Program-made: the position numbers and the translations under genes
The notes under the pieces: generated by a model
What the model was told of the DNA's origin: nothing
Database searches by the model: none
The model's input: only the letters and a program-made list of their open reading frames with translations
Shown: one piece after another, positions 13,952 to 37,963 of the stretch
Position numbering within the stretch: position 1 is the stretch's first letter
Layout: each line of letters starts with the position of its first letter
From: Alphaproteobacteria bacterium
GTDB lineage: Bacteria > Pseudomonadota > Alphaproteobacteria > Rhodobacterales > Rhodobacteraceae
Direction: 5' to 3'
Length of the DNA stretch: 64,000 nucleotides
NCBI GenBank assembly: GCA_024280735.1
Contig: JAJRPO010000046.1
Coordinates: 1 to 64,000, forward strand

Positions 13952-13977
13952 TACAACAATCAGCCTTTCAATTGCGA

Positions 13978-16222: not shown

Positions 16223-16495
16223 TCTAACTCCCGCACGGCACCTATGCCGTATGATATCGTGTAACTCATTACATCCGTGGCGTCTATCAACCCCTGCTTG
16301 AAACATCTCCTAACTACTATTTCTGAAAGTGCAAAGAAAAAGAAGGTGAGTTATGGCACACTTATTGGGATTATTTGTTGCCTCAGAAAAGAATTCCTCC
16401 TAACGTGAATTGCATCGGGGGAGCGATAAACGTGTTAAAGCACTGTTTTTATTATCTCTCCCACTATTTGAAACGATCACAAGCGGGTAACTAAA
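16223..16495. promoter_or_regulatory. Divergent control region between the two T6SS arms
   Basis: The 273 bases separate the leftward M15 peptidase gene from the rightward tssA and must carry promoters for both arms. The middle is AT-rich (16310-16470). I see one sigma-54-like pair (listed separately) and no convincing sigma-70 pair. No short gene with a ribosome site is visible. Confidence 0.5.
16354..16368 (+). promoter_or_regulatory. Possible sigma-54 promoter for the tssA operon
   Basis: TGGCAC followed after five bases by TTGG puts the two GG/GG pairs at the ten-base spacing of -24/-12 promoters; the ideal -12 box would be TTGC, so there is one mismatch. It points towards tssA, about 130 bases upstream. 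Sigma-54 control of T6SS genes is known in other proteobacteria, but no bacterial enhancer-binding protein is encoded in this window. Confidence 0.3.
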
Positions 16496-17530: not shown

Positions 17531-17605
17531 GATTACGACGACCGAAACTAAATAAGACGGCCCACAGGAACCGGGGCGTTAAACAAAACAACAAGGGAGA
17601 TGGCC

Positions 17606-18115
17606 ATGGCCGACAGCCAAAAATTTATTGCTCGCAACAGGGCACCACGCGTTCAAATTGAATACGATGTAGAGGTGTATGGCGCAGAAAAGAAAATCCA
17701 GTTGCCATTTGTGATGGGCGTAATGTCTGACCTGTCTGGCAAATCAGAGGTCAAGCAACCCGCCATGGCGGATCGCAAGTTTCTGGAAATCGACATTGAT
17801 AACTTTGACGACCGGATGAAATCCATGAAACCACGCGCCGCGTTTCGGGTGCCAAACACCCTAACGGGCGAGGGCAATCTCTCGGTTGATATTACCTTCG
17901 AGAGCATGGATGATTTTTCCCCCGCTGCCATTGCCTCCAAGGTGGAGCCGCTGAAAAAGCTGCTTGATGCGCGTACTCAACTGTCAAATCTGATGACATA
18001 TATGGATGGTAAATCAGGCGCCGAGGATTTGATTGCCAAGGTGATTCAAGATCCCGAACTACTGAAATCACTGTCTGCTTCTGCGAAGCAAGATGACGAT
18101 GCAGGGGAGGAATAA
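17606..18115 (+). CDS. tssB: T6SS contractile sheath small subunit TssB
   Basis: A 169-residue protein that forms, with TssC, the contractile sheath around the Hcp tube. Family features are NRAPRVQIEYDVE, LPFVMGVMSDLSG, the DIDNFDDRMKSMKPRAAFRV segment and the C-terminal helix with LLDARTQLSNLMTYMDGK. The ATG at 17606 is preferred to one six bases earlier because GGGAG then lies six bases upstream; the earlier ATG would touch the ribosome site. The stop is two bases before tssC. Confidence 0.96.
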   Translation: MADSQKFIARNRAPRVQIEYDVEVYGAEKKIQLPFVMGVMSDLSGKSEVKQPAMADRKFLEIDIDNFDDRMKSMKPRAAFRVPNTLTGEGNLSVDITFESMDDFSPAAIASKVEPLKKLLDARTQLSNLMTYMDGKSGAEDLIAKVIQDPELLKSLSASAKQDDDAGEE

Positions 18116-18117
18116 TC

Positions 18118-19605: not shown

Positions 19606-19667
19606 ATCATTAGGTCCGGCACTGACGTCGGGCCTGAATTTGAACTAAACTTAAAAGGAGTAATATT

Positions 19668-20195
19668 ATGCTTGATGCATATGGGTATTTTGGCGACGGT
19701 AAAAGCAAGACAGCAGAAGGTCTCGCGGGTGAAACGCTGGACGAGGTAATCGCAAAATGCGGCGGCTTTGACATTCATGACTTTAGCTTTGGCGTAGAGA
19801 ACGTTGTAAACGTTGGATCATCCTCCGGCGGTTTGGGTTCAGGTCGGGTGGAATTGGAACGTGTCGAGTTTTCCAAGAACACCGATACATCCACTGCGGC
19901 GCTGGTTTTGGCTGCCTGTACGGGCCGCCACATCAACGAATTCCACATTTCCCTGCGTAAAGGTGGCGGTGATGTGAAACGCTCTGGCGGCGAGTTCATC
20001 CATATCACGATGAAAAACGTGGTGGTTGAAAGCGTGAAATGGGCGGGCGCTGACGGGGATGAAACCCTGAAGGACAACGTGGTTATGGCCTTTGCCGGCA
20101 TCAAAATCGTCTACAAGAAACAAGACATGAAGGGCGAATTGACGGATGGCGGTGCGGTCGAGTGGAACCAAACCACCAACACGCCAAAAATGTAA
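19668..20195 (+). CDS. hcp: Hcp tube protein (TssD)
   Basis: A 175-residue Hcp-family protein that stacks as hexamers into the inner tube and is itself secreted. Typical features are GYFGDGKSKTAEGLAG at the start, FDIHDFSFG, the loop with GRVELERVEFSKNTDTST and the late VKIVYKKQD-like strand (IKIVYKKQDMKG). AGGAG lies eight bases before the ATG. It follows tssC by 62 bases and is followed by a strong terminator, so a short hcp-rich transcript is expected in addition to read-through. Confidence 0.95.
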   Translation: MLDAYGYFGDGKSKTAEGLAGETLDEVIAKCGGFDIHDFSFGVENVVNVGSSSGGLGSGRVELERVEFSKNTDTSTAALVLAACTGRHINEFHISLRKGGGDVKRSGGEFIHITMKNVVVESVKWAGADGDETLKDNVVMAFAGIKIVYKKQDMKGELTDGGAVEWNQTTNTPKM

Positions 20196-20205
20196 ACAAC
20201 AGGTT

Positions 20206-20247
20206 GTTGCCGGGTGTTTTGCGCCCGGCAACCTCTATTTGTTTTTT
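20206..20247 (+). terminator. Intrinsic terminator after hcp
   Basis: A perfect nine-base stem GTTGCCGGG / CCCGGCAAC with a nine-base loop (20206-20232) is followed by a T-rich tail ending in six T. It lies 11 bases after the hcp stop and 51 before tagJ, in the middle of the operon, so it should attenuate rather than end transcription and keep Hcp made in excess. Confidence 0.85.
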
Positions 20248-20297
20248 GAAACTGCAAGCACGCGTTCGCGTGTTTGCCCCTATTAAGAGCCGGGAAA

Positions 20298-21125
20298 ATG
20301 AGCGCGAGAGAACACTTGAAGGCCGGAGATATTTCGGCGGCTTATGCTGATCTGACAGCACAAATTCGCAAATCCCCCGCAGATGCCAAGCTGCGGGTAT
20401 TCCTGTTTCAAATGCTGTGTGTGCAGGGGGAATGGAAACGGGCGCTGACCCAGCTTAAGGTTATCGGCGAAATGGATCCGATGGCCTTGCCGATGGTCCA
20501 GTCTTACCGTGAGGCGATTGCCTGCGAGATGTTCCGCGAGGCCGTGTTCGCAGGTGAAAAGGCCCCGATGGTGTTTGGCGCGCCTGAACAGTGGGTGGCG
20601 CTGATGATCCAAGCCTTGAAACCGTTGGCGGCTGGGAATGCAACGCAGGCGGCGGATATGCGCGCCGAAGCGTTTGAGGCAGCCCCCGCCAGCTCCGGCA
20701 GTGCGGATGGCAAGGCGTTCAACTGGATTGCCGATGCGGATATGCGGCTGGGTCCCGTGTGCGAAATCATTATGAACGGCCATTATTACTGGGCACCTTA
20801 CAGCACGATTGCACGTCTGAAATTCGAGGACCCGACGGATTTACGCGATCGGGTCTGGACCCCTGCGGAGATCACTTGGGCGAATGGAGGCGAGGTGGTG
20901 GCCTTTATTCCTACCCGCTATCCCGGCGCGCCCTCAACCGGCAATGATGCGCTGATGTTGTCGGCTGAAACCACTTGGGCTGATGCGGGCAGCGATACGT
21001 TTGTGGGGTCTGGGCAACGGTTGTTAACCACAAACAGCGATGACTTGCCCCTGATGGATATTCGCGAAATCCTGCTGGATAACAAGGTTGAAGCCCCGAC
21101 AGGAGATGCCGATGGCGCGGGTTGA
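20298..21125 (+). CDS. tagJ: T6SS accessory protein TagJ (ImpE family)
   Basis: A 275-residue cytoplasmic protein. The N-terminal TPR-like part includes LKAGDISAAYADLTAQIRKS and VFLFQMLCVQGEWKRALTQL; the C-terminal ImpE part has FNWIADADMRLGP, NGHYYWAPYSTI and FIPTRYPGA. TagJ binds TssB in some systems and assists sheath handling by ClpV. The ATG at 20298 follows CGGGAAA; an earlier in-frame start lacks a site. Its end overlaps tssE by 14 bases. Confidence 0.9.
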   Translation: MSAREHLKAGDISAAYADLTAQIRKSPADAKLRVFLFQMLCVQGEWKRALTQLKVIGEMDPMALPMVQSYREAIACEMFREAVFAGEKAPMVFGAPEQWVALMIQALKPLAAGNATQAADMRAEAFEAAPASSGSADGKAFNWIADADMRLGPVCEIIMNGHYYWAPYSTIARLKFEDPTDLRDRVWTPAEITWANGGEVVAFIPTRYPGAPSTGNDALMLSAETTWADAGSDTFVGSGQRLLTTNSDDLPLMDIREILLDNKVEAPTGDADGAG

Positions 21126-21615
21126 ACTGTCAGAGAAAGAGCGGCTCCAGCCGTCGTTGCTGGATCGTTTGACGGATCGACATCCCGGCGAGGTCAAAGA
21201 AAGCGCGCGCGAGCGGGTGATTGATATTCGCCGCCTTCGTGACATTATTCAGCGTGATTTGGCATGGTTGCTGAATACAGCGAATAACAATGCAAATATT
21301 GATCCAAAATTATACCCCCATGCGGCGCGGTCTACTTTGAATTATGGAATTGAGGATATCGCCGGTAAGCTGGCCTCTAAAACCGGTATTAAGACGCTCG
21401 AAAGCACGATAAAGGCGGCGATTTATGCAATGGAACCACGGATCATTGCGGGGTCGCTGGATGTGCGGACTGGCCGCGATACAGATGGGCCGGAAAGTCA
21501 GGTTGCCATTGATATTCGGGCTGCACTTTGGGCCTCTCCTGTGCCGATGGAATTATATCTGCGCACCCACCTCGATATGGCCGATGGCAGTATCCAGATC
21601 GACAAGGTACGCTGA
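21112..21615 (+). CDS. tssE: T6SS baseplate protein TssE (gp25-like)
   Basis: A 167-residue baseplate wedge protein. The start LQPSLLDRLTDRHPGE and the middle RDIIQRDLAWLLNT and STLNYGIEDIAG match the gp25/TssE family, with the glutamate-arginine and NYG features of gp25. The ATG at 21112 has AGGAG six bases upstream; an ATG six bases earlier touches that site. It overlaps the end of tagJ by 14 bases and shares one base with the start of tssF (TGATG). Confidence 0.94.
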   Translation: MARVELSEKERLQPSLLDRLTDRHPGEVKESARERVIDIRRLRDIIQRDLAWLLNTANNNANIDPKLYPHAARSTLNYGIEDIAGKLASKTGIKTLESTIKAAIYAMEPRIIAGSLDVRTGRDTDGPESQVAIDIRAALWASPVPMELYLRTHLDMADGSIQIDKVR

Positions 21616-23489
21616 TGGATACGCGACTGCTCAAGCATTATGAAACGGAATTGGCATTCATCCGCGAAATGGGGGCTGAATTCGCCGAATCCTATCCAAA
21701 AATTGCGGGCCGTTTGGGCATGGACGGGGTTGAAATCAACGACCCATACGTGGAACGATTGGTTGAGAGTTTTGCCTTCCTGACCTCGCGTATCCAGCTG
21801 GAACTGGATTTGCGTTATCCGGTGTTCACCCAACATTTGCTGGAAATCATCTATCCGCATTATCTGGCCCCGACGCCCGCCATGTTTGTGGCCCAGATGG
21901 AACCAGAGCGTGGGTTGTCTGACAAGTTTGTGTTGAAACGCGGCACCCGTATGCGCGCACCACTGCGCGATGGCGACCAGACAGCCTGCGAATTTCGCAC
22001 CGCCCACGAGCTGGACCTGTGGCCGCTGTCCCTGACCGAGGTGCAATATTACGCGGGGCGCGGCGAGGTGGTTGCCGCGGGGCTGGGCAAGAATAACAAC
22101 GCCCGCGCAGCGCTACGATTGCGCCTTAAAACCAAGGCCGGGGTCAAGCTGAAAGAGCTGGATCTGGACCATCTGGATATTTTCCTGCCGGGTACTGATC
22201 GCAAGCCTTGGCAGCTTTATGAACATTTGCTGGCCAATAGCATCGGGTTAACGGGGCGTTCCACCGATCGGCGCGATGATTGGCTGGTGACGCCCAAAGG
22301 GGCAGGGGTTGCGCACCACGGGTTTGAACCGGAACAGGCGTTACTGCCCTATCCCGGCCAGTCCTTTGACGGGTATCGCCTGTTGCAGGAATATTTCGCC
22401 CTGCCGCAAAGGTTCTTTTTCGCGCGCCTGCACGGGCTTGCAGAAATCTGCGCCGCGACCAAAGGCGAGGAAGTCGATGTGCATATTCTATTGTCGGAAA
22501 GCCACCCTGATTTGCAAAACTCGCTGACCTTGGAGAATTTCGCGCTGCATTGCACGCCTGCTGTAAACTTGATGGAAAAACGCTGCGACCGGGTACGCGT
22601 GCGCCGCAAGGATGCGGATCATTTCGTTGTGGTAGACCGCACGGCCCCGATGGATTATGAAATTCACACGATACTGTCGGTTGAAGGCATGGCCTCAAGC
22701 GACAAAGACGATGTTGAATTTCGCCCCTTCTACAGCTCTGACGATTATACCGCAGCGGGCGAAAACCACGAAGCCTATTACGCAATCCGTCGCCGTTACC
22801 GCCAGAGATCAGAGCGGCAAAAGTTAAAGGGAACGCGCACGTCATACCTTGGAACGGATGTTTTTCTCAGCCTTGTTGACCGTGCCGAGGCCCCTTATCC
22901 GCAGGAATTGGAGCAACTGGCCGTGCGGGTGCTGTGTTCCAACCGCGATTTGCCGATGTTGCTGGCAACCGGCAAGGTTGCCGGTGATTTCCTGCTGGCC
23001 GATGGTGGCCCCGTCAGTAAAATCACCGCCGTATCGCCAATATCTGCCCCGCGTGCCTCTCTGGCAGTGGACGGGAACAGTGCTTGGCGCCTGGTCAGCC
23101 ACCTGAGCCTGAATTACCTGTCCATGGATGACGCGGATCGCGGATCAGCCGCGGCGAGCATTCGGGAGCTACTGGGGATTTACACGCCAAAAGGCGACAA
23201 AAACCTTGAAAAACAGCTGGAAGGCATCACCGAGGTGTCATCACGCCCCATCGTGCGGCGGATGAAAGACGAGGTGTTGAGCACCGCCGTGCGGGGCATG
23301 GAGATGAAAGTCACCTTCGACGAGAGCTATTTTGAAGGCACAGGCGTTTACTTGTTGGGGGCGGTTTTGGAACATTTCTTTGCCAAATACGTGTCGCTCA
23401 ATTCCTTTACCGAAACCGTAATCAACAGCACAGAAAGAGGAGAAATCGCCAGATGGCAAGCCAAGAGCGGGAGGCGCCGGATGATCTGA
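21615..23489 (+). CDS. tssF: T6SS baseplate protein TssF
   Basis: A 624-residue protein, standard TssF length. It begins MDTRLLKHYETELAFIREMG and continues with FAESYPKIAGRLGMDG, the family N-terminus, then FLTSRIQLELD and YPHYLAPTPAM. It forms the (TssF)2-TssG baseplate wedge. The start shares one base with the tssE stop, a sign of coupling; the longer open frame upstream lies inside tssE. Its last 37 bases overlap tssG. Confidence 0.96.
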   Translation: MDTRLLKHYETELAFIREMGAEFAESYPKIAGRLGMDGVEINDPYVERLVESFAFLTSRIQLELDLRYPVFTQHLLEIIYPHYLAPTPAMFVAQMEPERGLSDKFVLKRGTRMRAPLRDGDQTACEFRTAHELDLWPLSLTEVQYYAGRGEVVAAGLGKNNNARAALRLRLKTKAGVKLKELDLDHLDIFLPGTDRKPWQLYEHLLANSIGLTGRSTDRRDDWLVTPKGAGVAHHGFEPEQALLPYPGQSFDGYRLLQEYFALPQRFFFARLHGLAEICAATKGEEVDVHILLSESHPDLQNSLTLENFALHCTPAVNLMEKRCDRVRVRRKDADHFVVVDRTAPMDYEIHTILSVEGMASSDKDDVEFRPFYSSDDYTAAGENHEAYYAIRRRYRQRSERQKLKGTRTSYLGTDVFLSLVDRAEAPYPQELEQLAVRVLCSNRDLPMLLATGKVAGDFLLADGGPVSKITAVSPISAPRASLAVDGNSAWRLVSHLSLNYLSMDDADRGSAAASIRELLGIYTPKGDKNLEKQLEGITEVSSRPIVRRMKDEVLSTAVRGMEMKVTFDESYFEGTGVYLLGAVLEHFFAKYVSLNSFTETVINSTERGEIARWQAKSGRRRMI

Positions 23490-24481
23490 GCGCCCTGCAA
23501 GGGCTGGTTGATCATCCGGAGAAATACAATTTCTTTCAGGCGTTGCGCCTGATCGAGGCGACATTTAACGACGCGCCGCGTTTGGGGACATCCAAACGCC
23601 CACGCCACGACAAGGTGCGCCTGAAACAAAAGGTCGATCTGGCTTTTGCGCCCTCTACCGTGGCGGATTTTTCGTTGACGGGCAAAAAAGGCGGGCCGGC
23701 AGAGCTGTCGTCCTATCATTTCGGGGTGTTTGGCCCCAACGGCCCGATGCCGATGCACATTACCGAATATGTGCGCGAACGCCAGCATAACGCGCGTGAT
23801 GACACGTTCGCGGCCTTTGCGGATGTGTTTCATCACCGCTTGATCAGCCTGTTTTACCGGGCTTGGGCCTCGGCTGAACCGACGGCCTCGTTTGATCGGC
23901 CAGGGGACGATATATTTGCGGACCGGATGAAAGCATTCGCCGGATTGATGGGGGCAGGGGCTGCGGACCGCGATGCGATGCCGGACCTGACAAAGCTGCA
24001 ATTTGCAGGCCGCTTGTCGTCGGGTGCCAAGAATGAGGACGGGTTATTGGCAATGATCGCAACCTTCTTTCATGTTCCCGTCGAAATCGAGAGTTTTGTC
24101 GGCAGCTGGCTAGAGTTGGAGGCAGAGGACCAATGGCAATTGGGTGTTGAATCCCGTGACGGAGGGTTGGGTTACGGCACGTCGTTGGGCAGCAAAGTCT
24201 GGTCGCGCCAATCGAAATTCCGCATTAATATTGGCCCCCTAACGCTGGAAGAATACAAACGCCTGCTGCCCGGCGGTTTCAGCCTGTACCGCCTTGGGGC
24301 CATCGTGCGCAATTATTTAGGTGAAATGCTGGATTGGGATGTTAACCTGATACTGGCGGAGGGTCAGGCCCCGCCGACCATATTGGGCGAACAGGGTGAA
24401 ATGGGCTGGACAACCTGGCTGGGGGCACCCCCTAACGATAAACTATTAGACGATTTATATGTAACAGTATCAAGAAACTAG
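23453..24481 (+). CDS. tssG: T6SS baseplate protein TssG
   Basis: A 342-residue baseplate protein. Family features are KYNFFQALRLIEATFNDAP, PLGTS-like RLGTSKRPRHDKVRLKQ, YHFGVFGPNGPMPMHITEY, FADVFHHRLISLFYRAW and RLSSGAKNEDGLLAMIATFF. With two TssF it builds the wedge that joins TssK and TssE. The start at 23453 lies within the end of tssF and is preceded by AGAGGAG. A 74-base gap follows before clpV. Confidence 0.95.
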   Translation: MASQEREAPDDLSALQGLVDHPEKYNFFQALRLIEATFNDAPRLGTSKRPRHDKVRLKQKVDLAFAPSTVADFSLTGKKGGPAELSSYHFGVFGPNGPMPMHITEYVRERQHNARDDTFAAFADVFHHRLISLFYRAWASAEPTASFDRPGDDIFADRMKAFAGLMGAGAADRDAMPDLTKLQFAGRLSSGAKNEDGLLAMIATFFHVPVEIESFVGSWLELEAEDQWQLGVESRDGGLGYGTSLGSKVWSRQSKFRINIGPLTLEEYKRLLPGGFSLYRLGAIVRNYLGEMLDWDVNLILAEGQAPPTILGEQGEMGWTTWLGAPPNDKLLDDLYVTVSRN

Positions 24482-24555
24482 AGTGTGCGCTTAATGTAAA
24501 AATGCGGAATAACAATAGGGTCAAACAACCGACCCAGCAAAGGGAGAATTGAGAT

Positions 24556-27255: not shown

Positions 27256-27330
27256 TTTCGCACAGTTTTATTGCTGCCCTGTCGTAACATAACGGGGCAG
27301 CGCCATAGGAAACGGGGAAGCTAGAAGATT

Positions 27331-28170
27331 ATGACACAACAAGACATTCATCCGGCCCCTACAGGGCATCGCGCCAGGCTGGTGATTTGGCTGGAAACAC
27401 CGCTTGTTCGTTATGCCATTCTGACCATAATCATTCTGAATGCGATTACGCTGGGTTTAGGGACATCGCCCAAGGTTATCGAGGCCACGGGCAGTTTGAT
27501 GCCGCGTTTTGACAATCTGGTGATTTATATCTTTGTTTGTGAAATGGCTCTAAAACTCTATGCCTACGGCTGGAAGTTTTTCCGCTCCGCATGGAACCTG
27601 TTTGATCTGGCGATTGTTGCGGTGTCTTTGGTGCCCACCTCCTCCAGCCTGTCGGTTCTGCGTGGATTGCGGGTGATCCGTGTGATGCGGGTGCTGTCCG
27701 CCGTGCCGCAAATGCGCGACGTGATCAAGGCCTTGCTGGACGCATTGCCGGGCATGGGTGCGGTGGTGATCCTGTTGGGGATTGTATTCTATATCTTCGC
27801 GGTGATGGCGACTATTCTGTACGGTGCGGCCTTCCCGCAGTGGTTTGGCACGGTGGGTGAATCGCTGTATTCCTTGTTTCAAATCATGACGTTGGAAAGC
27901 TGGTCCATGGGCATTGTGCGCCCTGTCATGGAGCAGTTTCCCTATGCTTGGGCGTTCTTTGTGCCCTTCATTATTTCCACCGCCTTTGCCGTGCTTAACC
28001 TGTTTATTGGTTTGCTGGTCAACACCATGCAGGCGGCCGTGGAAGAAGCGCAGGATGCGGAGTTGGAGCGGATCATGAACCAAATGACTGAAAGCAATAC
28101 ACGGGTGGAGCAGCAATTAGCGGACATGCAGGCGCAATTGGCAGCCATGCAGAAAACGGCAGGCAAGTAA
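27331..28170 (+). CDS. Voltage-gated sodium channel, BacNav type, inside the T6SS operon
   Basis: A 279-residue, six-helix ion channel. S1-S3 lie at about 26-100; S4 carries Arg111, 114, 117 and 120 at three-residue spacing (SVLRGLRVIRVMRVLSAVPQ); S5 at about 140-165; the pore helix and filter TLESWS at 187-192, identical to the filter of studied bacterial sodium channels such as NavAb; S6 at about 205-234; and a C-terminal heptad-rich tail (about 237-275) like the tetramer-forming coiled coil of BacNav. It should conduct sodium on depolarisation. The stop is one base before the next sheath gene, so it is translated within the T6SS operon. No T6SS role for such a channel is known to me. Confidence 0.93.
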   Translation: MTQQDIHPAPTGHRARLVIWLETPLVRYAILTIIILNAITLGLGTSPKVIEATGSLMPRFDNLVIYIFVCEMALKLYAYGWKFFRSAWNLFDLAIVAVSLVPTSSSLSVLRGLRVIRVMRVLSAVPQMRDVIKALLDALPGMGAVVILLGIVFYIFAVMATILYGAAFPQWFGTVGESLYSLFQIMTLESWSMGIVRPVMEQFPYAWAFFVPFIISTAFAVLNLFIGLLVNTMQAAVEEAQDAELERIMNQMTESNTRVEQQLADMQAQLAAMQKTAGK

Positions 28171-28171
28171 G

Positions 28172-30139
28172 ATGACAGATGACAGTGGATACACCCCGAA
28201 TTTCGGTGAAATCACCGCCCCCAAGCCAGAGATAGCAGCCGGAGACCGTAAACGGATGCGCATTGCCATTATGGGCGATTTTTCGGGCCGCGCGAATAAG
28301 GGCGAGCTGGAAATAGGCGCTGATTTGGCGCGGCGCAAACCGATTAAATTCGATGTGGATACGTTTGAGGATGTGATCGAACGCTTTGCAACGACGTTGA
28401 TGCTGCCCATTGGCAAAGACGGCTCCATTATCGAGGTGGAGCTGGAGGAGTTGGATGCGTTGCATCCTGATGAATTATACGAGAATGTTGAGCTGTTTGC
28501 CGATCTTTCCGCCCTGCGCACCCAGATTTCACGCGGTCGCAATTTGGACAGTGTGATTGCGGACATGCAGGAATGGGGCGAGGAGTTTGGCGATTTCAAG
28601 CTGAACCGCAAAGCGCGCGCCAAAGGCGCCAAAGCCAGCACCACATTGGCGTTGAGCGAGTTTGAGAGCCTGATTGGCGCAGCACCAGAGGAGCGCGAGG
28701 GGTCAGATGTTGACGACCTGATCCAGCGTATCGTTGCGCCGTTTGTGGTGGCCGCCCCTGACGCCGGCCAAGAGGCAATGCTGGAGGCCGTTGACCAAGC
28801 TCTATCAGCGGCGATGGGTAGCATTTTGCATCACCCGGATTTTCAGGCAGTCGAAGCCAATTGGCGCGCCCTTGAGATGATTTCACGGCGCGTCGAAACC
28901 GGCGGCCATCTGGAAGTTGTGCTGTATGATGTGGCCGTCGAGGAATTCACCGCTGATCTGGCCGCCCAAGATGATCTGGGCGCGTGCGGTCTTTATGACA
29001 TGCTGGTCGAGCGCCCGCGACTGGACGAGGCCCAAGGCCCGCTGGCGGCTGTGTTTGGCCTTTATACCTTTGAGGAAACGCCGCCCCACGCGGAACTGAT
29101 GGGCCGTATGGCCAAAATCGCCGCCCATATGGACGCGCCATTTATTTCGGCAATTGGGGCCGGGTTCCTGAACACCAAAACCCTCGACCTGCCGCCGATG
29201 ATTGCCAAGACCTGGGCCAGCCTGCGCGAAATGCCAGAGTCGAAATATGTTGGGTTGGCCAGCCCGCGTTTCTTGCTGCGCCTACCCTATGGTAAACGCA
29301 GTGATCCGGTGGACCCGTTTGATTACACCGAGTTCAACATCAAAGAGGGGCTGCGCTCTCTGTTGCTGGGCAACCCTGCGGTTTTGGCGGCGGTGCTGTT
29401 GTGCGAAACAGTGGCACAACAGGGTTCTGAAATGTCGCTCGGCTCCATTATGTCGGTGGACGACATGCCGTTTCATTTTATGAACGACCAATACGGCGAC
29501 CAGATCGCGCTGCCTTCTACCGAGCGGTTGATCAACGTGCGCATGTCGGCACAAACCATTGATCGGGGGTATATGCCGGTGCTGTCCATTCAAGGGCAAA
29601 ACGTGGTGCGTCTCGGCTCGTTCAACGCGATTGGCGGCGGTCAGGTTCTGGGCCTGTGGTCTGGAGAGGAAGCCAAGGCGCTGTCTTCGGGCGCTATCCG
29701 CAACAAGGTGGACATTGGTTTTTCCTCCAAAATGGAAAAAGCGGCCCCTGTCGCAGCCAAAGCGACGGGTGGCGGTGATGATGATGACGGTGATTTCAAT
29801 TTTGGTAGCGACGACGACGACGATGGTGGTTTTGATTTCGGCGGCGGTGATGATGACGACGGCGGTTTTGACTTTGGGTCCGATGACGATGGGGATGACC
29901 CCTTTGACCTTGGCGGTGGCGACGACGACAGCGACGATAGCTTTGATTCCGGGTCCGATGATTCCAGCGACGACGACAGCAGCGACGACGGTTTTGATTT
30001 CGACAGTGATGATGATGGTGACAACGGTCTAGATGATCTGCTTGCCGGATTTGATGATGACGCAGATGACAATGATGACAGTGATGACGACGACTCCGAT
30101 ATGGACGACGAACTTGCTGCATTATTGGCAGACTTATAA
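28172..30139 (+). CDS. Fused TssB-TssC sheath paralogue with Asp-rich tail
   Basis: A 655-residue protein. Residues about 25-120 align by eye with TssB (RIAIMGDFSGR, then FDVDTFEDVIERF and LFADLSALRTQISRGRN). Residues about 170-530 are TssC-like (FQAVEANWRALEMISRR, then PFISAIGAGFLN, SPRFLLRLPYGKRSDPVDPF). The canonical TssC C-terminus is replaced by another ending, then an aspartate-rich tail from 533. Agrobacterium also carries a second TssC-like gene (TssC40), so a paralogue is known; this fused form with a tail is unusual. It may join the sheath, cap it, or act elsewhere. It starts one base after the channel gene. Confidence 0.82.
   Translation: MTDDSGYTPNFGEITAPKPEIAAGDRKRMRIAIMGDFSGRANKGELEIGADLARRKPIKFDVDTFEDVIERFATTLMLPIGKDGSIIEVELEELDALHPDELYENVELFADLSALRTQISRGRNLDSVIADMQEWGEEFGDFKLNRKARAKGAKASTTLALSEFESLIGAAPEEREGSDVDDLIQRIVAPFVVAAPDAGQEAMLEAVDQALSAAMGSILHHPDFQAVEANWRALEMISRRVETGGHLEVVLYDVAVEEFTADLAAQDDLGACGLYDMLVERPRLDEAQGPLAAVFGLYTFEETPPHAELMGRMAKIAAHMDAPFISAIGAGFLNTKTLDLPPMIAKTWASLREMPESKYVGLASPRFLLRLPYGKRSDPVDPFDYTEFNIKEGLRSLLLGNPAVLAAVLLCETVAQQGSEMSLGSIMSVDDMPFHFMNDQYGDQIALPSTERLINVRMSAQTIDRGYMPVLSIQGQNVVRLGSFNAIGGGQVLGLWSGEEAKALSSGAIRNKVDIGFSSKMEKAAPVAAKATGGGDDDDGDFNFGSDDDDDGGFDFGGGDDDDGGFDFGSDDDGDDPFDLGGGDDDSDDSFDSGSDDSSDDDSSDDGFDFDSDDDGDNGLDDLLAGFDDDADDNDDSDDDDSDMDDELAALLADL
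29768..30136 (+). repeat. Aspartate-rich repeats in the TssB-TssC fusion
   Basis: Codons 533-655 encode about half aspartate, with glycine, serine and phenylalanine. The left part repeats a unit of about 12 residues, DDDDGGFDFGS or close variants, at least four times; the right part is aspartate-serine-rich and ends in a short hydrophobic helix, DELAALLADL. The DNA repeats GATGAC-type codons. Such a tail could bind calcium or a basic partner; this is inference. Confidence 0.85.
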
Positions 30140-30191
30140 CAGAACGTGCCGCCCGTGGCTGGCAATCGTTTGTATTTAGATAGGTGTAGAC

Positions 30192-32558
30192 ATGGCTTTT
30201 GAAACACTCAAAATTGAAGGGCGTAATACCCGGATTCTTTGCCCTGAAATAAATGCAGACCTGTTCTTTCTGCACGCCGATATCAGCGAGGGTATCAGTC
30301 AGCTGGTCACGATCGAGGCAGAATTCCTGACTGACGTACGCGATCTGGACAGCGAAAAGTTTCTTGCCGAAGAAATCATCATCGTTATGGAAGTCGAAGA
30401 TGAAACCGTGCGCGCCTGGAAAGGTCTGTGTATTGAATGCCTGTATATCGGCGAAAGCACGGGAATGGGGCATGGTACCTATGCCCATTACCGTATTCAG
30501 GCGCGTTCTTGGCCCTGGATGCTGACCCGAACCACTGATTGCCGGATTTTCCAGAATTTGAAAACCGAAGACATTATCAAGCAGGTGTTTGGCGATGCCG
30601 GTTTCGCCGATTATCGTTTTAAATTGAATGGCAACTATCAAGAGCGTGAATATTGCGTTCAATACCGCGAATCCGATTTTGATTTCATCAGCCGCCTGAT
30701 GGAAGATGAGGGCATGTTTTATCGTTTTGAACACGATTGGGAAGCTAGCAGCGAGGATGATAAACAGACGAAAGTCTGGATGGAAATAATGGATGACAGC
30801 AGTCAGACAGACCAAATATGGGGCGATTTCAATATCCGGCTGCTGGACAAAGAAAGTGGCCAGCGCGAGGAAAAAGATTTCATTCACAAATGGGAAGAGC
30901 GGAAATCGTTTGATACGGGTCTTGTTACCCTGCGCGATTACGATTTCACCAAACCCAAGGCCGACCTGACCGGCACCCGTAAAGTAACCAAAAAGAAATA
31001 CTCTGATTACGAGCATTACGATTACCCAGGGCGCTATGAGGAACAGGAACGCGGCACCCAGATTGCCGCCCGCAAGCTGGAGGCGATTACAGCAGAACGC
31101 TATCAGGTGCGGGGGCAGGGGTTGTTTAAACAACTTGAGCCGGGCAAGCGGTTTGGCTTGGTTGACCATCCCAATGACACCCAGAACGCCGATTATCTGG
31201 CCGTTCGGATGATCCACAAGCTCAAGCAGGAAAAAACCGATTCCAAGGCGATCAAACGCCCCGAGGATTTTCGCTTTTCCGAGGAAGACATCATTGAGGC
31301 GCATGAGGTGACATTCGTCGCCCAGCCTGTGGATGTTCCGTTCAAACCCAAAGAGGTAACACCCTGGCCGTCAATCGCCGGCGTGCAAACAGCCGTGGTT
31401 GTTGGCCCCTCGGATGAAGAAATTTACACCGATGAATTTGGCCGTATCAAGATACAATTCCATTGGGACCGTGAGGGGAAGGACGATGACAAATCGTCCT
31501 GCTGGGTTCGGGTGATGACGCCGATGTCGGGAAAAAACTGGGGAATGCTGTCAATTCCGCGCATCGGTCAGGAGGTTGTGGTTCAATTTGAAGAAGGCGA
31601 TCCGGATCGCCCGCTGGTGGTTGGCATGATCTATAACGCCGACAACACGGTTCCGATGTCGCAACCCGGCAATAAAACCCAAATTGGTTTCCGCACGGAT
31701 TGCCATAAGAACGACGACGGAGAGGCCTTTCACGAATTTATTCTGGAAGACAATAAAGACAGCGAATTCATCCGTATGGTTTCCGAGAAAGATTATTATG
31801 TCACCGTGAAGAACAACACGGTTATTACCTATGGCACAGGCGACAAAGACGAGGGGACGCTGAAACTGGATGTGTGGAAACAAACCACCGAAACCTTCGG
31901 CGTGGCCTCGGGCGAGGGCGGGTTGGAACAGGAAGTTCAGGATGATTTCAAAAAGACAGTCTGGAAAGGCGATTACCTGCTTGATGTGATGGAGGGGGAT
32001 CGCAAAACCTTTATTAAGTGTGATGAAATCCTGAAAATCGACGGCGATCGCAAGACAAATATCAAGAAAGACGAGATTCTTGATATCAAGGAAGACCGCA
32101 AAACAACCGTTGTTATGGACGATATACTGGAAGTTAAAGAGGATCGCAAAACCGAGGTAGGTGGCAATCAGGAACTCGAGGTAAAGGGTAAGCGTGAGAC
32201 CACTATCAAGAAAGACGATGGCCTTGAGGTCAAAGGCAAGCGCGAGGCCAAGGTTAATAAAAACGATGAGCTAAAGGTCACTGGCGACCGGTTGGTTACG
32301 GTGAAAAAGAACATCAAAAGCGTGGCGACCAAAAGCATTCTGGAACGTGCGACCAAAATGATCATGTTAAAGGCGGATACCAAGATCGTGCTGCAATGCG
32401 GGGCGTCAAAAATCGTGATGTCGCCCACTGGCATCAAAATCACCGCGCCGACGGTTGAGGTGAAAGCAACGGCCAAGGCAGATATCAGTTCACCGATGAC
32501 CACCATAAAAGGCGATGCAATAATGACCGTCAAAGGCGGTCTGGTTATGATTAACTAG
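30192..32558 (+). CDS. vgrG: T6SS spike protein VgrG (TssI)
   Basis: A 788-residue spike. The gp27-like part covers about 1-390 (ESDFDFISRLMEDEGMFYRF is the family signature), followed by the gp5 OB fold (FGRIKIQFHWDREGK, then SCWVRVMTPMSGKNWG, IPRIGQEVVVQFEEGDPDRP) and a long beta-helix with seven 16-residue repeats. The last part (about 714-788) continues as a thinner beta structure. There is no enzymatic C-terminal domain, so effectors would ride on the tip through PAAR or adaptors. It is followed after 10 bases by a DUF6931-like gene. Confidence 0.96.
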   Translation: MAFETLKIEGRNTRILCPEINADLFFLHADISEGISQLVTIEAEFLTDVRDLDSEKFLAEEIIIVMEVEDETVRAWKGLCIECLYIGESTGMGHGTYAHYRIQARSWPWMLTRTTDCRIFQNLKTEDIIKQVFGDAGFADYRFKLNGNYQEREYCVQYRESDFDFISRLMEDEGMFYRFEHDWEASSEDDKQTKVWMEIMDDSSQTDQIWGDFNIRLLDKESGQREEKDFIHKWEERKSFDTGLVTLRDYDFTKPKADLTGTRKVTKKKYSDYEHYDYPGRYEEQERGTQIAARKLEAITAERYQVRGQGLFKQLEPGKRFGLVDHPNDTQNADYLAVRMIHKLKQEKTDSKAIKRPEDFRFSEEDIIEAHEVTFVAQPVDVPFKPKEVTPWPSIAGVQTAVVVGPSDEEIYTDEFGRIKIQFHWDREGKDDDKSSCWVRVMTPMSGKNWGMLSIPRIGQEVVVQFEEGDPDRPLVVGMIYNADNTVPMSQPGNKTQIGFRTDCHKNDDGEAFHEFILEDNKDSEFIRMVSEKDYYVTVKNNTVITYGTGDKDEGTLKLDVWKQTTETFGVASGEGGLEQEVQDDFKKTVWKGDYLLDVMEGDRKTFIKCDEILKIDGDRKTNIKKDEILDIKEDRKTTVVMDDILEVKEDRKTEVGGNQELEVKGKRETTIKKDDGLEVKGKREAKVNKNDELKVTGDRLVTVKKNIKSVATKSILERATKMIMLKADTKIVLQCGASKIVMSPTGIKITAPTVEVKATAKADISSPMTTIKGDAIMTVKGGLVMIN
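31995..32330 (+). repeat. Seven 16-residue beta-helix repeats in VgrG
   Basis: Seven consecutive 48-base units encode variants of GDRKTNIKKDEILDIK with exact 16-residue spacing: the first, GDRKTFIKCDEILKID, starts at 31995, and the last, GDRLVTVKKNIKSVAT, ends at 32330. The alternation of hydrophobic residues fits two beta strands per repeat in the trimeric needle of gp5/VgrG. The DNA copies differ, so the array is old. Confidence 0.85.
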
Positions 32559-32568
32559 AGGGCGCGTT

Positions 32569-33147
32569 ATGGCAAATCCACAAGCATTCAGGAAATTGGA
32601 CAAGCTCCCCATCGTGGGGTTTGGCGATTTCTGTCATCAGGAAAAAATCAAGATAAATGCCAAATTTGGCATCGATCCCGCGGCCCCTTTGACCTACGGT
32701 TTGGAAACCTTATACAATAACAACGCAATGATGGAGTTTTTGCAGGTGCTTTGTTCGGCACTGCCGGCGCGGGAACGGGTTTGGTTTGCCTGCCTTGCGT
32801 GCCGCGATATGCTGCCCAAAGGCGCGCCCAAAACAGCAGTTCTACAAGCAGCAGAGGCTTGGGTTTACAAGCCAAACATCAGGACCCGCAACGCGGTAGA
32901 GCAGGCGTTGAAAGACGCCGATGGTGATGATCCGACGGTTATGGCTGGGGACGCGGCATTTCATGGAATTGTGCCCGGTCTGGAGGATGAGGTGAAAAGC
33001 CCGCCAAACGCCTGCGCCGCCATGGCTTTTGGCGCGGTCCTTCAATCACTTTATGCCAGATCCAGCGAGACCGCACAAAAAGAGAAATGGCAATTGTTGG
33101 CGGCGCGCGGCCTGAATATTGCCTCTGGCGGCAGTGGTGCCATCTAG
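32569..33147 (+). CDS. T6SS-associated hypothetical protein, DUF6931-like
   Basis: A 192-residue soluble protein with no signal peptide. It contains YGLETLYNNNAMMEFLQVLC, then ALPARERVWFACLACRDMLP and VLQAAEAWVYKPNIRTRNAV, a pattern I associate from memory with DUF6931; this was not checked. Four cysteines lie close together in the middle (two in CLACRD). Being between vgrG and PAAR, it could be a chaperone or loading adaptor for an effector, as other families in that place are. RBS GAGGGCGTT precedes the ATG. The function is unknown. Confidence 0.6.
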   Translation: MANPQAFRKLDKLPIVGFGDFCHQEKIKINAKFGIDPAAPLTYGLETLYNNNAMMEFLQVLCSALPARERVWFACLACRDMLPKGAPKTAVLQAAEAWVYKPNIRTRNAVEQALKDADGDDPTVMAGDAAFHGIVPGLEDEVKSPPNACAAMAFGAVLQSLYARSSETAQKEKWQLLAARGLNIASGGSGAI

Positions 33148-33246: not shown

Positions 33247-33333
33247 TAAGCGGGTAGGATCATCCGGCAAAGTATGGTTTAATTGATCTACGCGATCAGG
33301 CAACGGTCGCAAGTTCTTGGAAAGGGGCACAAA

Positions 33334-33636
33334 ATGGGAATGCCAGCAACGCGAATAACCGATATGCACGTCTGCCCGATGGTGACACCCGCCGTGCCGC
33401 CCGTGCCCCATGTGGGCGGGCCAGTGATCAAACCGGTGACGCCTACGGTGTTGATCGGCAATCTCCCGGCCGCCGGGGTGACCAGCACTTGCGTTTGCGT
33501 CGGGCCGCCTGACATGATTGTCAAAGGCTCGATGACGGTTTTGATTGGCAAACTGCCTGCGGCGCGCATCGGCGACATGACCATGCACGGCGGCAGTGTG
33601 GTTGCCGGTCTGCCCACTGTATTGATTGGCGGCTAG
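33334..33636 (+). CDS. PAAR-domain spike tip protein
   Basis: A 100-residue protein made only of a PAAR domain, which sharpens the VgrG tip and holds zinc. It shows repeated LIGNLPAAG/LIGKLPAAR units, typical of PAAR, and the metal-binding candidates His12, Cys14, His26, Cys53, Cys55 and His85. No effector domain is fused. The ATG at 33334 is chosen because an AAGGGG site precedes it and the domain begins at once. It lies between a palindromic element and the fha gene. Confidence 0.92.
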   Translation: MGMPATRITDMHVCPMVTPAVPPVPHVGGPVIKPVTPTVLIGNLPAAGVTSTCVCVGPPDMIVKGSMTVLIGKLPAARIGDMTMHGGSVVAGLPTVLIGG

Positions 33637-33651
33637 GAAGACTATTTCAAG

Positions 33652-35181
33652 ATGACACTCACCCTTCATATCCTTTCCACCGGCGCGCAAGCAGATCGGG
33701 TGAATTCAATTGTCATGGTAGGCGAGGCGCTGACCATCGGGCGCGCTGACACCAATGATCTGGTCCTGCCTGATCCCACCCGTGAAATTTCATCCAGCCA
33801 TGCGGTATTGCAAACCCATGGGGCTGACTATCAGGTGGTGGACACCTCGACCAACGGCACCTTCCTGAATTCCGAAAGCAGTGCTTTGGGGGATCTGCCG
33901 TCGCCGCTCAATAACGGCGATACCCTGCGTATTGGCCCCTACGAGATGCGGGTGGAAATCGACGGGACGGCGCTTGATCTGATGGACGCGCTGCCGGCAC
34001 CGATGGATGCCACGCCGATTATGGATCCGAATGCCAACCCGCTGACAGGCGATGTGCTGGCCGAGGTTGCCTCGATTGATCATGATGGCGGTGATTTTTT
34101 GGATGATTTGCTGGGGGCCGCACCGCCCAACGCGATGAACACACCTACCCGCGACGTGGCCCATGGCGGCGCCGAGGTGATAAACGAGTTTCTGGATGTG
34201 GCACCGGATGAAAACCTTGACGGCGGTGCCAGTGCGGCAGACCATTCCGCCGCAACGCGTGACTATTTTGCCCCCAACGCGGGTGACAGTGCGATACCGG
34301 ATGACTGGGATGATGATTTCTTATCCGGCGATGAAAACCCGTTTGCACCCCCTGCCGCCAATGGGGCGACACCGGATTTTACCCCGGAGCCACCTGCACC
34401 CGTGCAAGTGGATGTCGCGCCAAATAATCCCCCCCCACAACCGGAACCGGTTGCGGAGGTTCCCGAACCAGCCGTGGCACCGGTACCTGTTGTTGAGCAA
34501 ACCCAACCCGCGCCAGAACCCGTTGTGGCAAAGCCAGCAGCCGTTAGCCCGGAAACAAAACCCATAAAAACCCCGCCAGCCACCAGTGGCCCCAATCCGG
34601 CCCGTGGCTTTCTGGAGGCCGCAGGCGTTGATCACAGCCGTATCAATGACGAGGAGTTGGCCGAAATAATGACCCGTTCCGGCACCGTATTTCGCACCTT
34701 GATAGAAGGCGCGCGCGAGGTGTTGATGGCACGCAACACAATCAAAGACGAGCTGCGGTTGGAAAAAACCACCATTTCACCGGATGGCAATAACCCGATC
34801 AAATTCTCGATCAGTGGTCGCCAAGCAGTCGAGGCCATGGTGAAACCCTCGGTGCCTGGATACAAGGCAGGCCCTGCGTCCGCAGAGGAGGCGATGGCGG
34901 ATATCAAAGCCCATGAGGTAGCGATGATGTCGGGAATGGAAAACGCGATCAAATCCCTGCTGGGGCGGTTCAACCCGGACACGCTCGCCAAAAAGATCGA
35001 AAAGGACGGCGGTAAGGGCGGTTTTTTAAAGGGTAAAAAGGCGCGCTATTGGGAGGTTTTTGAAAGTCTCTATGGACAAATTTCCGAGGAAGCAGAGGAA
35101 GATTTCCATTCACTGTTCGGCAAGGAATTCGCCAAAGCCTATGCAATACAAATGAAAACGATAAAGGCCAGCAAAGATTAA
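33652..35181 (+). CDS. fha: T6SS FHA-domain protein (TagH/Fha)
   Basis: A 509-residue cytoplasmic protein. The N-terminal FHA domain (about 22-95) has Gly30-Arg31, SSSHAVLQ (His50) and STNGTF (Asn68), the phosphothreonine-binding residues. A long acidic and then proline/valine-rich linker (about 110-310) leads to the conserved C-terminal T6SS FHA region with RGFLEAAGVD, RTLIEGAREVLMAR and the final FHSLFGKEFAKAYA. Fha is the usual substrate of PpkA and becomes an assembly platform when phosphorylated. The gene begins 16 bases after PAAR. Confidence 0.93.
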   Translation: MTLTLHILSTGAQADRVNSIVMVGEALTIGRADTNDLVLPDPTREISSSHAVLQTHGADYQVVDTSTNGTFLNSESSALGDLPSPLNNGDTLRIGPYEMRVEIDGTALDLMDALPAPMDATPIMDPNANPLTGDVLAEVASIDHDGGDFLDDLLGAAPPNAMNTPTRDVAHGGAEVINEFLDVAPDENLDGGASAADHSAATRDYFAPNAGDSAIPDDWDDDFLSGDENPFAPPAANGATPDFTPEPPAPVQVDVAPNNPPPQPEPVAEVPEPAVAPVPVVEQTQPAPEPVVAKPAAVSPETKPIKTPPATSGPNPARGFLEAAGVDHSRINDEELAEIMTRSGTVFRTLIEGAREVLMARNTIKDELRLEKTTISPDGNNPIKFSISGRQAVEAMVKPSVPGYKAGPASAEEAMADIKAHEVAMMSGMENAIKSLLGRFNPDTLAKKIEKDGGKGGFLKGKKARYWEVFESLYGQISEEAEEDFHSLFGKEFAKAYAIQMKTIKASKD

Positions 35182-35217: not shown

Positions 35218-36561
35218 GTGTCTTGGGAAAGCAAAGTAATCTGGAGCGAGGGGCTGTTTTTACAGCCCCATCACTTCCAACAAAGTGACCGCTATCTGGA
35301 AAGCCAGATTGCCGGAATCGGGCGTGGGATCATGCCTTACGTCTGGGGTGTTCGCGAATTAATGATTGATGACGAATTGCTGCGTCTGGGTAAATTCGCC
35401 ATCAAAACCTGCAACGGCATCACACCGGATGGCACCAATTTCCGCGTGCCTGCGGTGGACGATTTACCGCCCGCGATGGAAATCCCGACCACGGTAAAAA
35501 ACTCGGTGATCTATCTGACGGTTCCGACGCGGCGCCAGGGTGCGGCCGAGGTGGAGTTGGAATTCAAGGCCAATTCGGCCACGCGTTTTCTGCCCTCCGA
35601 GGTGGATGTCACCAATGCCGTTGGCAACGACAAAAAGCAAACACCGATTGCGGTGGGCAAGCTGCGCCTGCAATTCGCCCTTGATGTGGACGATCTTGAT
35701 GATCGCCTGATCATGCCGATTGCCAAGGTGATAGAGGTCCGTTCTGACGGGGAAATCCTGCTGGACCGCAATTTCATCCCCTCGGTCACAGATCAACGTG
35801 CCGCCCGGCCCTTGACGGAGTTTCTGCGCGAAATCGAGGGGCTGTTAAGCCATCGCTGCGAGGCTTTGGCTGGGCGTCTGTCTGACAGCGGCCCCTCCAA
35901 AGGCGTGGCTGAATTGTCTGATTTTCTGTTGTTGATCGCGGTCAACCGCCTGCTGCCGCAGGTGCGCCACCTCATCAGCATTGAAAACACCCATCCTTGC
36001 GCGCTTTATGGTTTTCTTGTTGGCATGGCAGGGGAGCTGTCTACCTTTATGACCACGGAAAAACACACCCCTGAATTTCCGCTGTATCAGCATGACAATC
36101 TGTCAGAGACCTATCAACCGGTGATGCGGGTTTTGCGCCAATACCTGAGCGCGGTTCTGGAACAGAATGCTGTGAAAATCGAATTGCAACCGCGCAAATA
36201 TGGCGTCAGCGTCGCGGTGATTGCCGATAAGCGCCTGTTGGCTGCTGGCACCCAGATGGTACTGGCTTGCAAGGCAGATACCCCGGCGGAAAACGTGCGC
36301 CGCCACATCCCGACCCAAGCCAAAATCGGCCCGGTCGAGGATATTCGCCAATTGGTCAATTCCGCGCTTCCGGGTATTGGCTTGCGCCCCTTGCCTGTGG
36401 CCCCGCGCCAGATCCCTTATCATTCCGGCGTGGTTTATTTTGAGCTGGATCCCGCCAGTTCCTATTGGAAAAAAATGCGTAGCTCGGGTGGCCTAGCCGT
36501 GCATGTGGCGGGGGAATTCCCCGGGTTGGAAATGGAACTCTGGGCCATTCGTGCCAGTTGA
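35218..36561 (+). CDS. tssK: T6SS baseplate-membrane connector TssK
   Basis: A 447-residue protein with the signature WSEGLFLQPHHFQQSDRYLE at the N-terminus, where TssK has its receptor-like shoulder, and IPYHSGVVYFELDPAS towards the end. It links the TssF/TssG wedges to TssL/TssM in the membrane. The start is GTG at 35218, with GAGGAG nine bases upstream. A 15-base gap separates it from tssL. Confidence 0.96.
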   Translation: MSWESKVIWSEGLFLQPHHFQQSDRYLESQIAGIGRGIMPYVWGVRELMIDDELLRLGKFAIKTCNGITPDGTNFRVPAVDDLPPAMEIPTTVKNSVIYLTVPTRRQGAAEVELEFKANSATRFLPSEVDVTNAVGNDKKQTPIAVGKLRLQFALDVDDLDDRLIMPIAKVIEVRSDGEILLDRNFIPSVTDQRAARPLTEFLREIEGLLSHRCEALAGRLSDSGPSKGVAELSDFLLLIAVNRLLPQVRHLISIENTHPCALYGFLVGMAGELSTFMTTEKHTPEFPLYQHDNLSETYQPVMRVLRQYLSAVLEQNAVKIELQPRKYGVSVAVIADKRLLAAGTQMVLACKADTPAENVRRHIPTQAKIGPVEDIRQLVNSALPGIGLRPLPVAPRQIPYHSGVVYFELDPASSYWKKMRSSGGLAVHVAGEFPGLEMELWAIRAS

Positions 36562-36576
36562 GAATGAGGTGATACT

Positions 36577-37959: not shown

Positions 37960-37963
37960 TTCT

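What the first reader, a model, noticed from the sequence alone, without database searches (positions are those of the whole stretch)
27331..28170. A bacterial voltage-gated sodium channel encoded inside a T6SS operon
Seen: a complete BacNav-type channel (S4 arginines 111, 114, 117, 120; filter TLESWS at 187-192) lies between clpV and a sheath-like gene, with one base between its stop and the next start. Known: BacNav channels occur in marine alphaproteobacteria. Inference: depolarisation or sodium entry may signal attack or membrane damage to the secretion system, or the channel may adjust the ion gradient during firing.
Basis: partly seen in the sequence, partly recalled or inferred. Interest (0 to 1): 0.9.

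Follow-up and report, generated by a model that had tools for sequence, protein, structure and literature searches.

The report
Sodium channel paired with injection machine
Many marine bacteria carry a dedicated voltage-gated sodium channel gene inside the operon for a harpoon-like weapon, nearly always locked to an odd sheath-like gene, which suggests that the weapon is controlled by, or controls, membrane voltage.

Summary
Window 27331-28170 encodes an intact BacNav channel (four S4 arginines, TLESWS filter) inside a full T6SS cluster, between clpV and a sheath-like gene. It is no one-strain oddity: of 394 genomes of the family, 36 (36 genus codes) carry this channel type and 36 of 36 copies lie in a T6SS cluster; 7 loci from another collection agree. 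These channels form one clade; 84 of 84 ordinary BacNavs examined show no T6SS gene in the DNA held. Channel stop and next sheath-gene start overlap or lie one base apart in 40 of 43 loci. Selection is purifying; the NavMs R119 site is basic in 4 of 43 against 61 of 77 ordinary channels. No paper listed in my searches reports the link. Best guess, untested: depolarisation or sodium entry through the channel controls a sheath step through TssCL. Effector and hitch-hiker look unlikely; a structural anchor is not excluded.

The parts
27331..28170 (+). BacNav-type voltage-gated channel of the T6SS-linked clade (nav)
27661..27690 (+). codons 111-120: S4 voltage-sensor arginines R111, R114, R117, R120
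   Evidence: arginine at all four sites in 44 of 44 clade rows (L003 included) and 77 of 77 ordinary BacNavs
27889..27906 (+). codons 187-192: selectivity filter TLESWS
   Evidence: 44 of 44 clade rows and 77 of 77 ordinary BacNavs
27718..27720 (+). codon 130 (Asp), site of NavMs R119 in the S4-S5 linker
   Evidence: R/K in 4 of 43 clade members vs 61 of 77 ordinary BacNavs; role of R119 from passages of PMC5316852
28030..28167 (+). C-terminal cytoplasmic tail (codons 234-279), coiled-coil-like; begins in the conserved NTMQxAVE
   Evidence: alignment A1; coiled coil inferred from sequence, not computed
28172..30139 (+). tssCL: sheath-like protein (TssB-like + TssC-like parts, acidic tail, C-terminal LAALLADL); short form without the N-terminal TssB
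   Evidence: family named in PMC9515649
24556..27255 (+). clpV / tssH
27272..27302 (+). 11-bp hairpin in the clpV-nav gap, not followed by a T-run; possible mRNA processing or attenuation site
   Evidence: 96-nt stretch, z -2.2; the terminator scan lists no site here
30192..32558 (+). vgrG / tssI
32569..33147 (+). DUF6931 protein
33283..33636 (+). PAAR protein
16496..24481 (+). tssA, tssB, tssC, hcp, impE/tagJ, tssE, tssF, tssG
33652..35181 (+). FHA protein TagH
35218..41536 (+). tssK, tssL (OmpA-type), tssM
41533..42826 (+). tagF and pppA-like PP2C phosphatase
8489..11254 (-). PpkA-like Ser/Thr kinase with a likely membrane segment; the only Pkinase match in this (71% complete) genome
   Evidence: the name PpkA-like is my inference from the domain and place

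Best explanation
A dedicated paralogue of the bacterial voltage-gated sodium channel has become a built-in accessory of one T6SS subtype of this Rhodobacteraceae-type family and works as a pair with the fused sheath protein TssCL. SHOWN: T6SS-only location in what was examined, single clade, joint distribution with TssCL, overlapping or abutting genes, intact voltage sensor and filter, purifying selection, clade-specific residues at the linker and lower S6. INFERRED: it still opens on depolarisation and passes Na+; the two genes are translationally coupled. PROPOSED and untested: opening near the T6SS membrane complex, after a rival's hit or pore toxin or after the cell's own firing, gives a local Na+/voltage signal that TssCL reads, either by contact with the channel's cytoplasmic face or through its very acidic tail and linker, and that permits or ends a sheath step (assembly, or contraction and recycling). 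The kinase-phosphatase-FHA-TagF proteins of the same region would set the general on/off state.
For: Family census of 394 genomes: T6SS-type channel in 36, 36 of 36 inside T6SS clusters; TssCL in 40; both in 35. Among 54 clusters of the subtype (36 with the channel, whose TssCL state is taken, and 18 without it that had a readable clpV-vgrG interval): 35 both, 1 channel only, 5 TssCL only, 13 neither (Fisher p 1e-7, kinship not corrected). Tree of 101 rows: 44 clade rows form one side of a branch, SH-aLRT 98, quick method. Ordinary BacNavs: no T6SS gene in the DNA held for 72 of 72, 5 of 5 and 7 of 7 second copies from genomes that also hold the T6SS-type channel. Stop-to-next-start distance -11 to +1 in 40 of 43 loci (in L008 the next gene reads as a lone tssB, see report). 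S4 and filter unchanged in 44 of 44. dN/dS 0.05-0.26. NavMs R119 site R/K in 4 of 43 vs 61 of 77, p 4e-14, kinship not corrected. Nine clade-specific sites: 35, 127, 137, 144, 151, 229, 232, 237, 252.
Against: No described function for any of these T6SSs: PMC9515649 section 12 (read) says so for the symbionts and the reference roseobacters. Five TssCL genomes do without the channel and one channel genome does without TssCL. On the ClpV tree only 4 supported independent contrasts exist; the two traits go the same way in 3.3 of 4 on average, not significant. Channel and TssCL show no specific co-divergence beyond the shared T6SS history (partial r -0.04 to 0.16, 29 loci). Other parts of the NavMs interaction motif are kept in the clade: W77 43 of 43, R118 43 of 43, Q122 as Q in 34 of 43, E229 as E/D in 39 of 43, so the gate-side change may be modest. 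No complex or structure could be modelled.
Confidence: 0.42

Rival explanations
1. Structural anchor: the tetrameric channel body and its C-terminal bundle fix TssCL (and so a sheath or baseplate end) to the inner membrane; ion flow is not needed.
For: Tight gene coupling to a sheath-like partner; several clade-specific residues lie in the S4-S5 linker and lower S6 by alignment with NavMs.
Against: Filter and all four gating arginines are invariant in 44 of 44, which a mere anchor would not need; no contact between the two proteins is shown.
Confidence: 0.2
2. Ion balance or energetics: the channel offsets or restores ion gradients disturbed by firing or by incoming pore toxins and has no signalling role.
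For: A T6SS effector that depolarises cells exists (Tse4, PMC12169545: listing and abstract start seen); BacNavs conduct Na+ (general knowledge).
Against: Gives no reason for the link to TssCL rather than to T6SS in general; 13 readable clusters of the same subtype lack both; for 7 of the 36 genomes I fetched a second, ordinary BacNav.
Confidence: 0.17
3. Hitch-hiker: an ordinary BacNav that came to sit in the operon and keeps its housekeeping role.
For: Presence changes 9 times on the ClpV tree, so it is not essential; no function is known.
Against: One clade, in T6SS clusters in 36 of 36 genomes with 36 different genus codes; overlapping stop/start in most loci; ordinary copies coexist elsewhere in at least 7 of these genomes.
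Confidence: 0.12
4. Secreted effector: the channel is delivered into rivals and depolarises them.
For: A channel-forming T6SS effector is known (Tse4, abstract start).
Against: Pfam finds no delivery domain; no sign of fast divergence; in 42 of 43 loci the next gene found is sheath-like (40 abutting, L138 and L139 after 43 and 52 bases; L117 is the exception) and not a candidate immunity gene.
Confidence: 0.04

Closest known systems
BacNav channels, nearest solved NavMs (5hvx, 6sx5)
   Same: Six-helix Ion_trans match, S4 R-x-x-R-x-x-R-x-x-R, TLESWS filter, S3 Trp (W88 = W77), cytoplasmic tail
   Different: Own clade; R119 counterpart replaced in 39 of 43; Q127 in 42, T232 and V237 in 43 of 43; in T6SS clusters in every judged case. 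The NavMs chains whose alignments were printed read PTMR where the clade reads PQMR; alignments of other solved BacNavs were not looked at
TssCL fused sheath protein of roseobacter T6SS (PMC9515649, passages and section 12 seen)
   Same: Same protein family in the same kind of T6SS cluster; long form = TssB + linker + second TssB-like + TssC-like part
   Different: The paper's main text has no occurrence of 'channel' or 'ion transport'; the window's TssCL is the short form without the first TssB
T6SS membrane-damage sensing through PpkA/PppA/FHA (H1-T6SS of Pseudomonas aeruginosa; recalled, listing)
   Same: FHA protein, PP2C phosphatase, TagF and a PpkA-like kinase are encoded here
   Different: No ion channel is part of that pathway as far as I recall; TagQRST homologues were not searched
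Channel-forming T6SS toxin Tse4 (PMC12169545, abstract start seen)
   Same: Ion channel linked to a T6SS
   Different: That is a secreted weapon; this is a conserved gene abutting a sheath-like gene

Membership tests
BacNav voltage-gated sodium channels | Ion_trans six-helix domain | tested here: met
   Pfam PF00520 E 1.9e-40
BacNav voltage-gated sodium channels | Four S4 gating arginines at three-residue spacing | tested here: met
   R111, 114, 117, 120
BacNav voltage-gated sodium channels | TLESWS-type filter | tested here: met
   residues 187-192
BacNav voltage-gated sodium channels | Tetramer that conducts Na+ on depolarisation | not testable with these tools
TssCL sheath fusion (PMC9515649) | Second, TssB-like part plus VipB N-terminal domain in one protein | tested here: met
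TssCL sheath fusion (PMC9515649) | N-terminal full TssB domain and long linker | tested here: not met
   absent in the window copy (655 aa); the TssB start is present in 33 of the 40 rows (recount); the window gene is a short-form member by its core
T6SS accessory component | Encoded in the cluster and co-inherited with it | tested here: met
T6SS accessory component | Needed for or changes T6SS activity | not testable with these tools
   needs deletion and imaging
T6SS effector | Recognisable delivery domain or adjacent immunity gene | tested here: not met
   Pfam finds only Ion_trans and PKD_channel; next gene is tssCL; cargo effectors without such a domain are not excluded by this

The most novel reading that the evidence does not exclude
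A voltage-gated sodium channel is an integral, dedicated part of a contractile injection system: it makes sheath assembly or firing electrically controlled, with TssCL as the cytoplasmic reader of membrane voltage or local sodium. It would give this clade of BacNav channels a concrete cellular role.
Probability: 0.35. Interest if true: 0.95.

Novelty: new variant of a known kind. Interest (0 to 1): 0.86.

Why it matters
What bacterial voltage-gated sodium channels are for in the cell is largely open (general knowledge), although they are model channels for neuroscience. Here a whole clade is tied by operon, distribution and overlapping genes to a machine with a visible, quantifiable output (sheath assembly and contraction), so the role becomes directly testable. 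If the link is functional, membrane voltage joins phosphorylation as a control of T6SS, and TssCL gains a partner to be studied with.

Tried and rejected
Specific co-divergence of channel and TssCL (mirror-tree, 29 of 42 loci with all genes readable): partial r between -0.04 and 0.16, not significant. Independent-contrast test of joint gain/loss: only 4 supported pairs, not significant. Phages and viral contigs as carriers: one distant phage record (35% identity) and no confirmed viral contig (108 pattern matches, none confirmed). Spread outside the family: the TssCL query in 385 genomes of the class gave matches in 70; one outside the family (G540, 212 bits) stands well above the other genomes (113 bits or less), whose matches I take for ordinary sheath proteins though I opened only one of them (G538, ordinary TssB and TssC matches); around the G540 gene 20 kb hold no other match to my T6SS queries, and its channel is on another contig. 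Promoter-like sites in 24300-30300 are not above chance (3 found, 3.7 expected), terminator-like ones are (15 vs 7.1) but none is in the clpV-nav gap; no Rfam match in 16000-43500. L003 falls in the clade, but its contig ends just after the channel and its upstream part looks foreign; I dropped it from counts of 43 and say so where 44 is used. L008: the ORF after the channel is a lone 171-aa TssB followed by an ordinary TssC start; its contig begins with the other half of a tssC (about 241 and 252 aa), so I take it for an assembly loop at the TssB repeat, but it was counted with the TssCL loci. In L004 and L009 the contig ends before the TssC-like part and in L002 there is a run of unknown bases; these too were counted as TssCL, on their TssB-plus-linker start. 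The gene found between clpV and nav in many loci was considered as part of the unit and rejected: it is absent in the window and in others, and variable. Of the TssK rows without a T6SS-type channel I fetched 40 loci, best-scoring ones first and then a choice of lower ones; the rest were not fetched. Only 57 of 89 ordinary channels went into the tree. The ORF tables were cut, so the stretch before TssCL in L162, L167 and L168 was judged alone.

Full report
OBSERVATION. The window (contig C61 of a genome that is 71% complete, in 88 contigs) holds a T6SS cluster: tssA, tssB, tssC, hcp, impE/tagJ, tssE, tssF, tssG, clpV, nav, a sheath-like gene, vgrG, DUF6931, PAAR, FHA (tagH), tssK, tssL, tssM, tagF and a PP2C phosphatase. 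The finding's ORF is exactly as described: 27331-28170, 279 aa, S4 arginines 111/114/117/120, TLESWS at 187-192, one base before the next ATG. It matches Ion_trans (E 1.9e-40) and the solved channel 5hvx (E 1.5e-77). It is the only Ion_trans match in this incomplete genome.

RECURRENCE. A search of 394 genomes of the family (393 genera) with the protein found a match in 271. Best scores fall into two groups: 36 genomes at 323 bits or more (window's own included; 36 different genus codes) and the rest at 307 bits or below. I fetched the DNA around all 35 others of the first group and the next 5 in rank. By tblastn with the window's T6SS proteins, 35 of 35 lie in a T6SS cluster and 0 of 5 of the next do. 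Of 80 loci from the species-genome collection, 7 (L002, L004-L009) lie in T6SS clusters; L003 (contig end, foreign-looking upstream part) cannot be judged; L010-L081, 72 of 72, show no T6SS gene in the DNA held, which for some is short. For 7 genomes with a T6SS-type channel I fetched a second channel copy; 7 of 7 lie away from T6SS genes. In plasmid records 39 match; of six opened, five are T6SS clusters (Leisingera methylohalidivorans, L. aquaemixtae, Ruegeria conchae, Parasedimentitalea psychrophila, Qingshengfaniella alkalisoli), where the channel is annotated only as 'ion transporter', and one (Peteryoungia, 54% identity) is not.

ONE CLADE. In a tree of 101 rows (44 clade rows with L003, 57 of 89 ordinary channels) the T6SS-linked channels form one side of a single branch, SH-aLRT 98; the tree is of the quick kind and has long branches, one of them (L139) in the clade. 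Nine sites separate the groups at 90% against 20%: 35, 127, 137, 144, 151, 229, 232, 237, 252 (44 rows against 77). By the alignment, window 88, 129, 130, 133 and 240 correspond to NavMs W77, R118, R119, Q122 and E229. PMC5316852 (abstract and passages seen) describes an interaction motif in which R119 of the S4-S5 linker bridges to E229 of the tail and which is linked to gating. The R119 site is R or K in 4 of 43 clade members and 61 of 77 ordinary ones; W77 and R118 are kept in 43 of 43, Q122 in 34 of 43, E229 as E/D in 39 of 43 but not in the window, which has A. The gating arginines and the filter are unchanged in 44 of 44. So sensor and pore are kept while part of the coupling region at the cytoplasmic side has changed. 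That this reflects a cytoplasmic partner is inference.

PARTNER. The gene after the channel belongs to TssCL, a TssB-TssC fusion described from roseobacter T6SS clusters (PMC9515649: passages and section 12; genes without a known T6SS function are drawn as 'other', and the main text has no occurrence of 'channel' or 'ion transport'). Of 33 complete proteins in the table (40 rows, 7 cut off), 26 have 1059-1712 aa and 7, the window's included, 535-721 aa (recount). A TssB start is present in 33 of the 40 rows; it is followed by a long acidic linker with repeats, a second TssB-like part and a TssC-like part without a match to the second VipB domain. All 33 complete ones end in LxALLxxL, one with one more residue. 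Census: TssCL at E below 1e-40 in 40 of 394 genomes; 35 have both, 5 TssCL only (G077, G175, G188, G263, G318), 1 the channel only (G162, where the best TssCL match is at the level of ordinary sheath proteins). Of 40 further TssK loci fetched from genomes without the T6SS-type channel, 18 are of the same subtype with a readable clpV-vgrG interval: 13 have neither gene (vgrG follows clpV within about 320 bases in 12; in L153 a 1.5-kb stretch with another gene lies between), 5 have TssCL alone. The 2x2 table is 35, 1, 5, 13 (Fisher p 1e-7); this ignores kinship. On a ClpV tree of 61 clusters the channel changes state 9 times and TssCL 7 times, and among 4 supported independent pairs they go the same way in 3.3 on average, too few for significance.

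COUPLING AND SELECTION. The channel's stop and the start of the next sheath gene overlap or lie one base apart (-11 to +1) in 38 of 42 loci by rule-based start choice, in L114 by reading the junction (TTGA overlap) and in the window (+1): 40 of 43. In one of these, L008, the next gene reads as a lone tssB and I suspect an assembly loop; in L002, L004, L009, L120, L123, L126 and L132 the sheath gene is cut or holds unknown bases before its end. The exceptions are L138 (+43), L139 (+52) and L117 (no tssCL). In contrast the clpV-to-channel gap varies from 10 to 3207 bases and often holds a variable gene; three such proteins were scanned and none reaches a Pfam cut-off. dN/dS in the 25 closest pairs is 0.05-0.26 where dS is finite (23 pairs).

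WHAT IT DOES. Shown: a channel paralogue confined to T6SS clusters in what was examined, co-distributed with TssCL and abutting it, under constraint, with sensor and filter intact. Inferred: it conducts Na+ on depolarisation. Proposed: it supplies a voltage or sodium signal (or a voltage-dependent contact) that TssCL turns into control of a sheath step. The region also encodes FHA, PP2C, TagF and, divergently upstream, a PpkA-like kinase that is the only Pkinase match in this genome, so the channel may act beside the phosphorylation pathway. Against a specific protein pair stands the lack of co-divergence beyond shared T6SS history. Rivals are listed with what would refute them.

NOVELTY. Seven literature searches were aimed at the link and three at the background. 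No listed title or abstract start joins a voltage-gated sodium channel with a T6SS cluster. The lists were partial (20 of 42; 15 of 284; 8 of 25). The one hit was checked and is unrelated (passages); TssCL is named only in PMC9515649. The library holds only openly licensed papers, and supplements were not searched. TssCL itself is known since 2022. I class it as a new variant of a known kind: known channel family and known T6SS subtype, in a conserved union that I did not find in print.

Noticed in passing
window 7763-16306 (-): Divergent from tssA: PpkA-like kinase (8489-11254; weak OmpATb-like and DUF4384 matches after a likely membrane segment), a caspase-domain protein (12365-13951), an OmpA protein (7763-8458) and a peptidase M15-like protein (15395-16306); may be T6SS-linked.
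   Followed up: partly
L002 8732-9901, L007 8904-9905, L008 8364-9656: Variable Lys-rich helical-looking proteins (333-430 aa, some with a glycine/alanine-rich hydrophobic stretch) between clpV and nav, none over a Pfam cut-off; a gene of similar look sits between clpV and vgrG in L153. Could be effectors or adaptors.
   Followed up: partly
window 28172-30139; L005 10809-14864; L112, L124: TssCL linker and tail carry repeated acidic-Leu motifs and a conserved C-terminal LxALLxxL; they look like short docking motifs (the recalled FliM-type EIDALL is similar) and may bind a T6SS partner.
   Followed up: partly
window 27272-27302: Strong 11-bp hairpin between clpV and nav without a T-run; possible processing or attenuation site.
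   Followed up: partly
L229 9535-11007 (-) (G540, another family): A TssCL-like protein (34% identity) with no other match to the window's T6SS proteins in the 20 kb around it.
   Followed up: no
plasmids NC_023136, NZ_CP127249, NZ_CP081104, NZ_CP042263, NZ_CP041164: The channel-T6SS cluster lies on plasmids in these five records, so it may move between strains.
   Followed up: partly
L003 1-7756: A contig filed as Planctomycetota ends in a channel of this clade and the end of a helical gene like that of L002; its upstream part looks unrelated, probably a chimera or mis-binned contig.
   Followed up: partly
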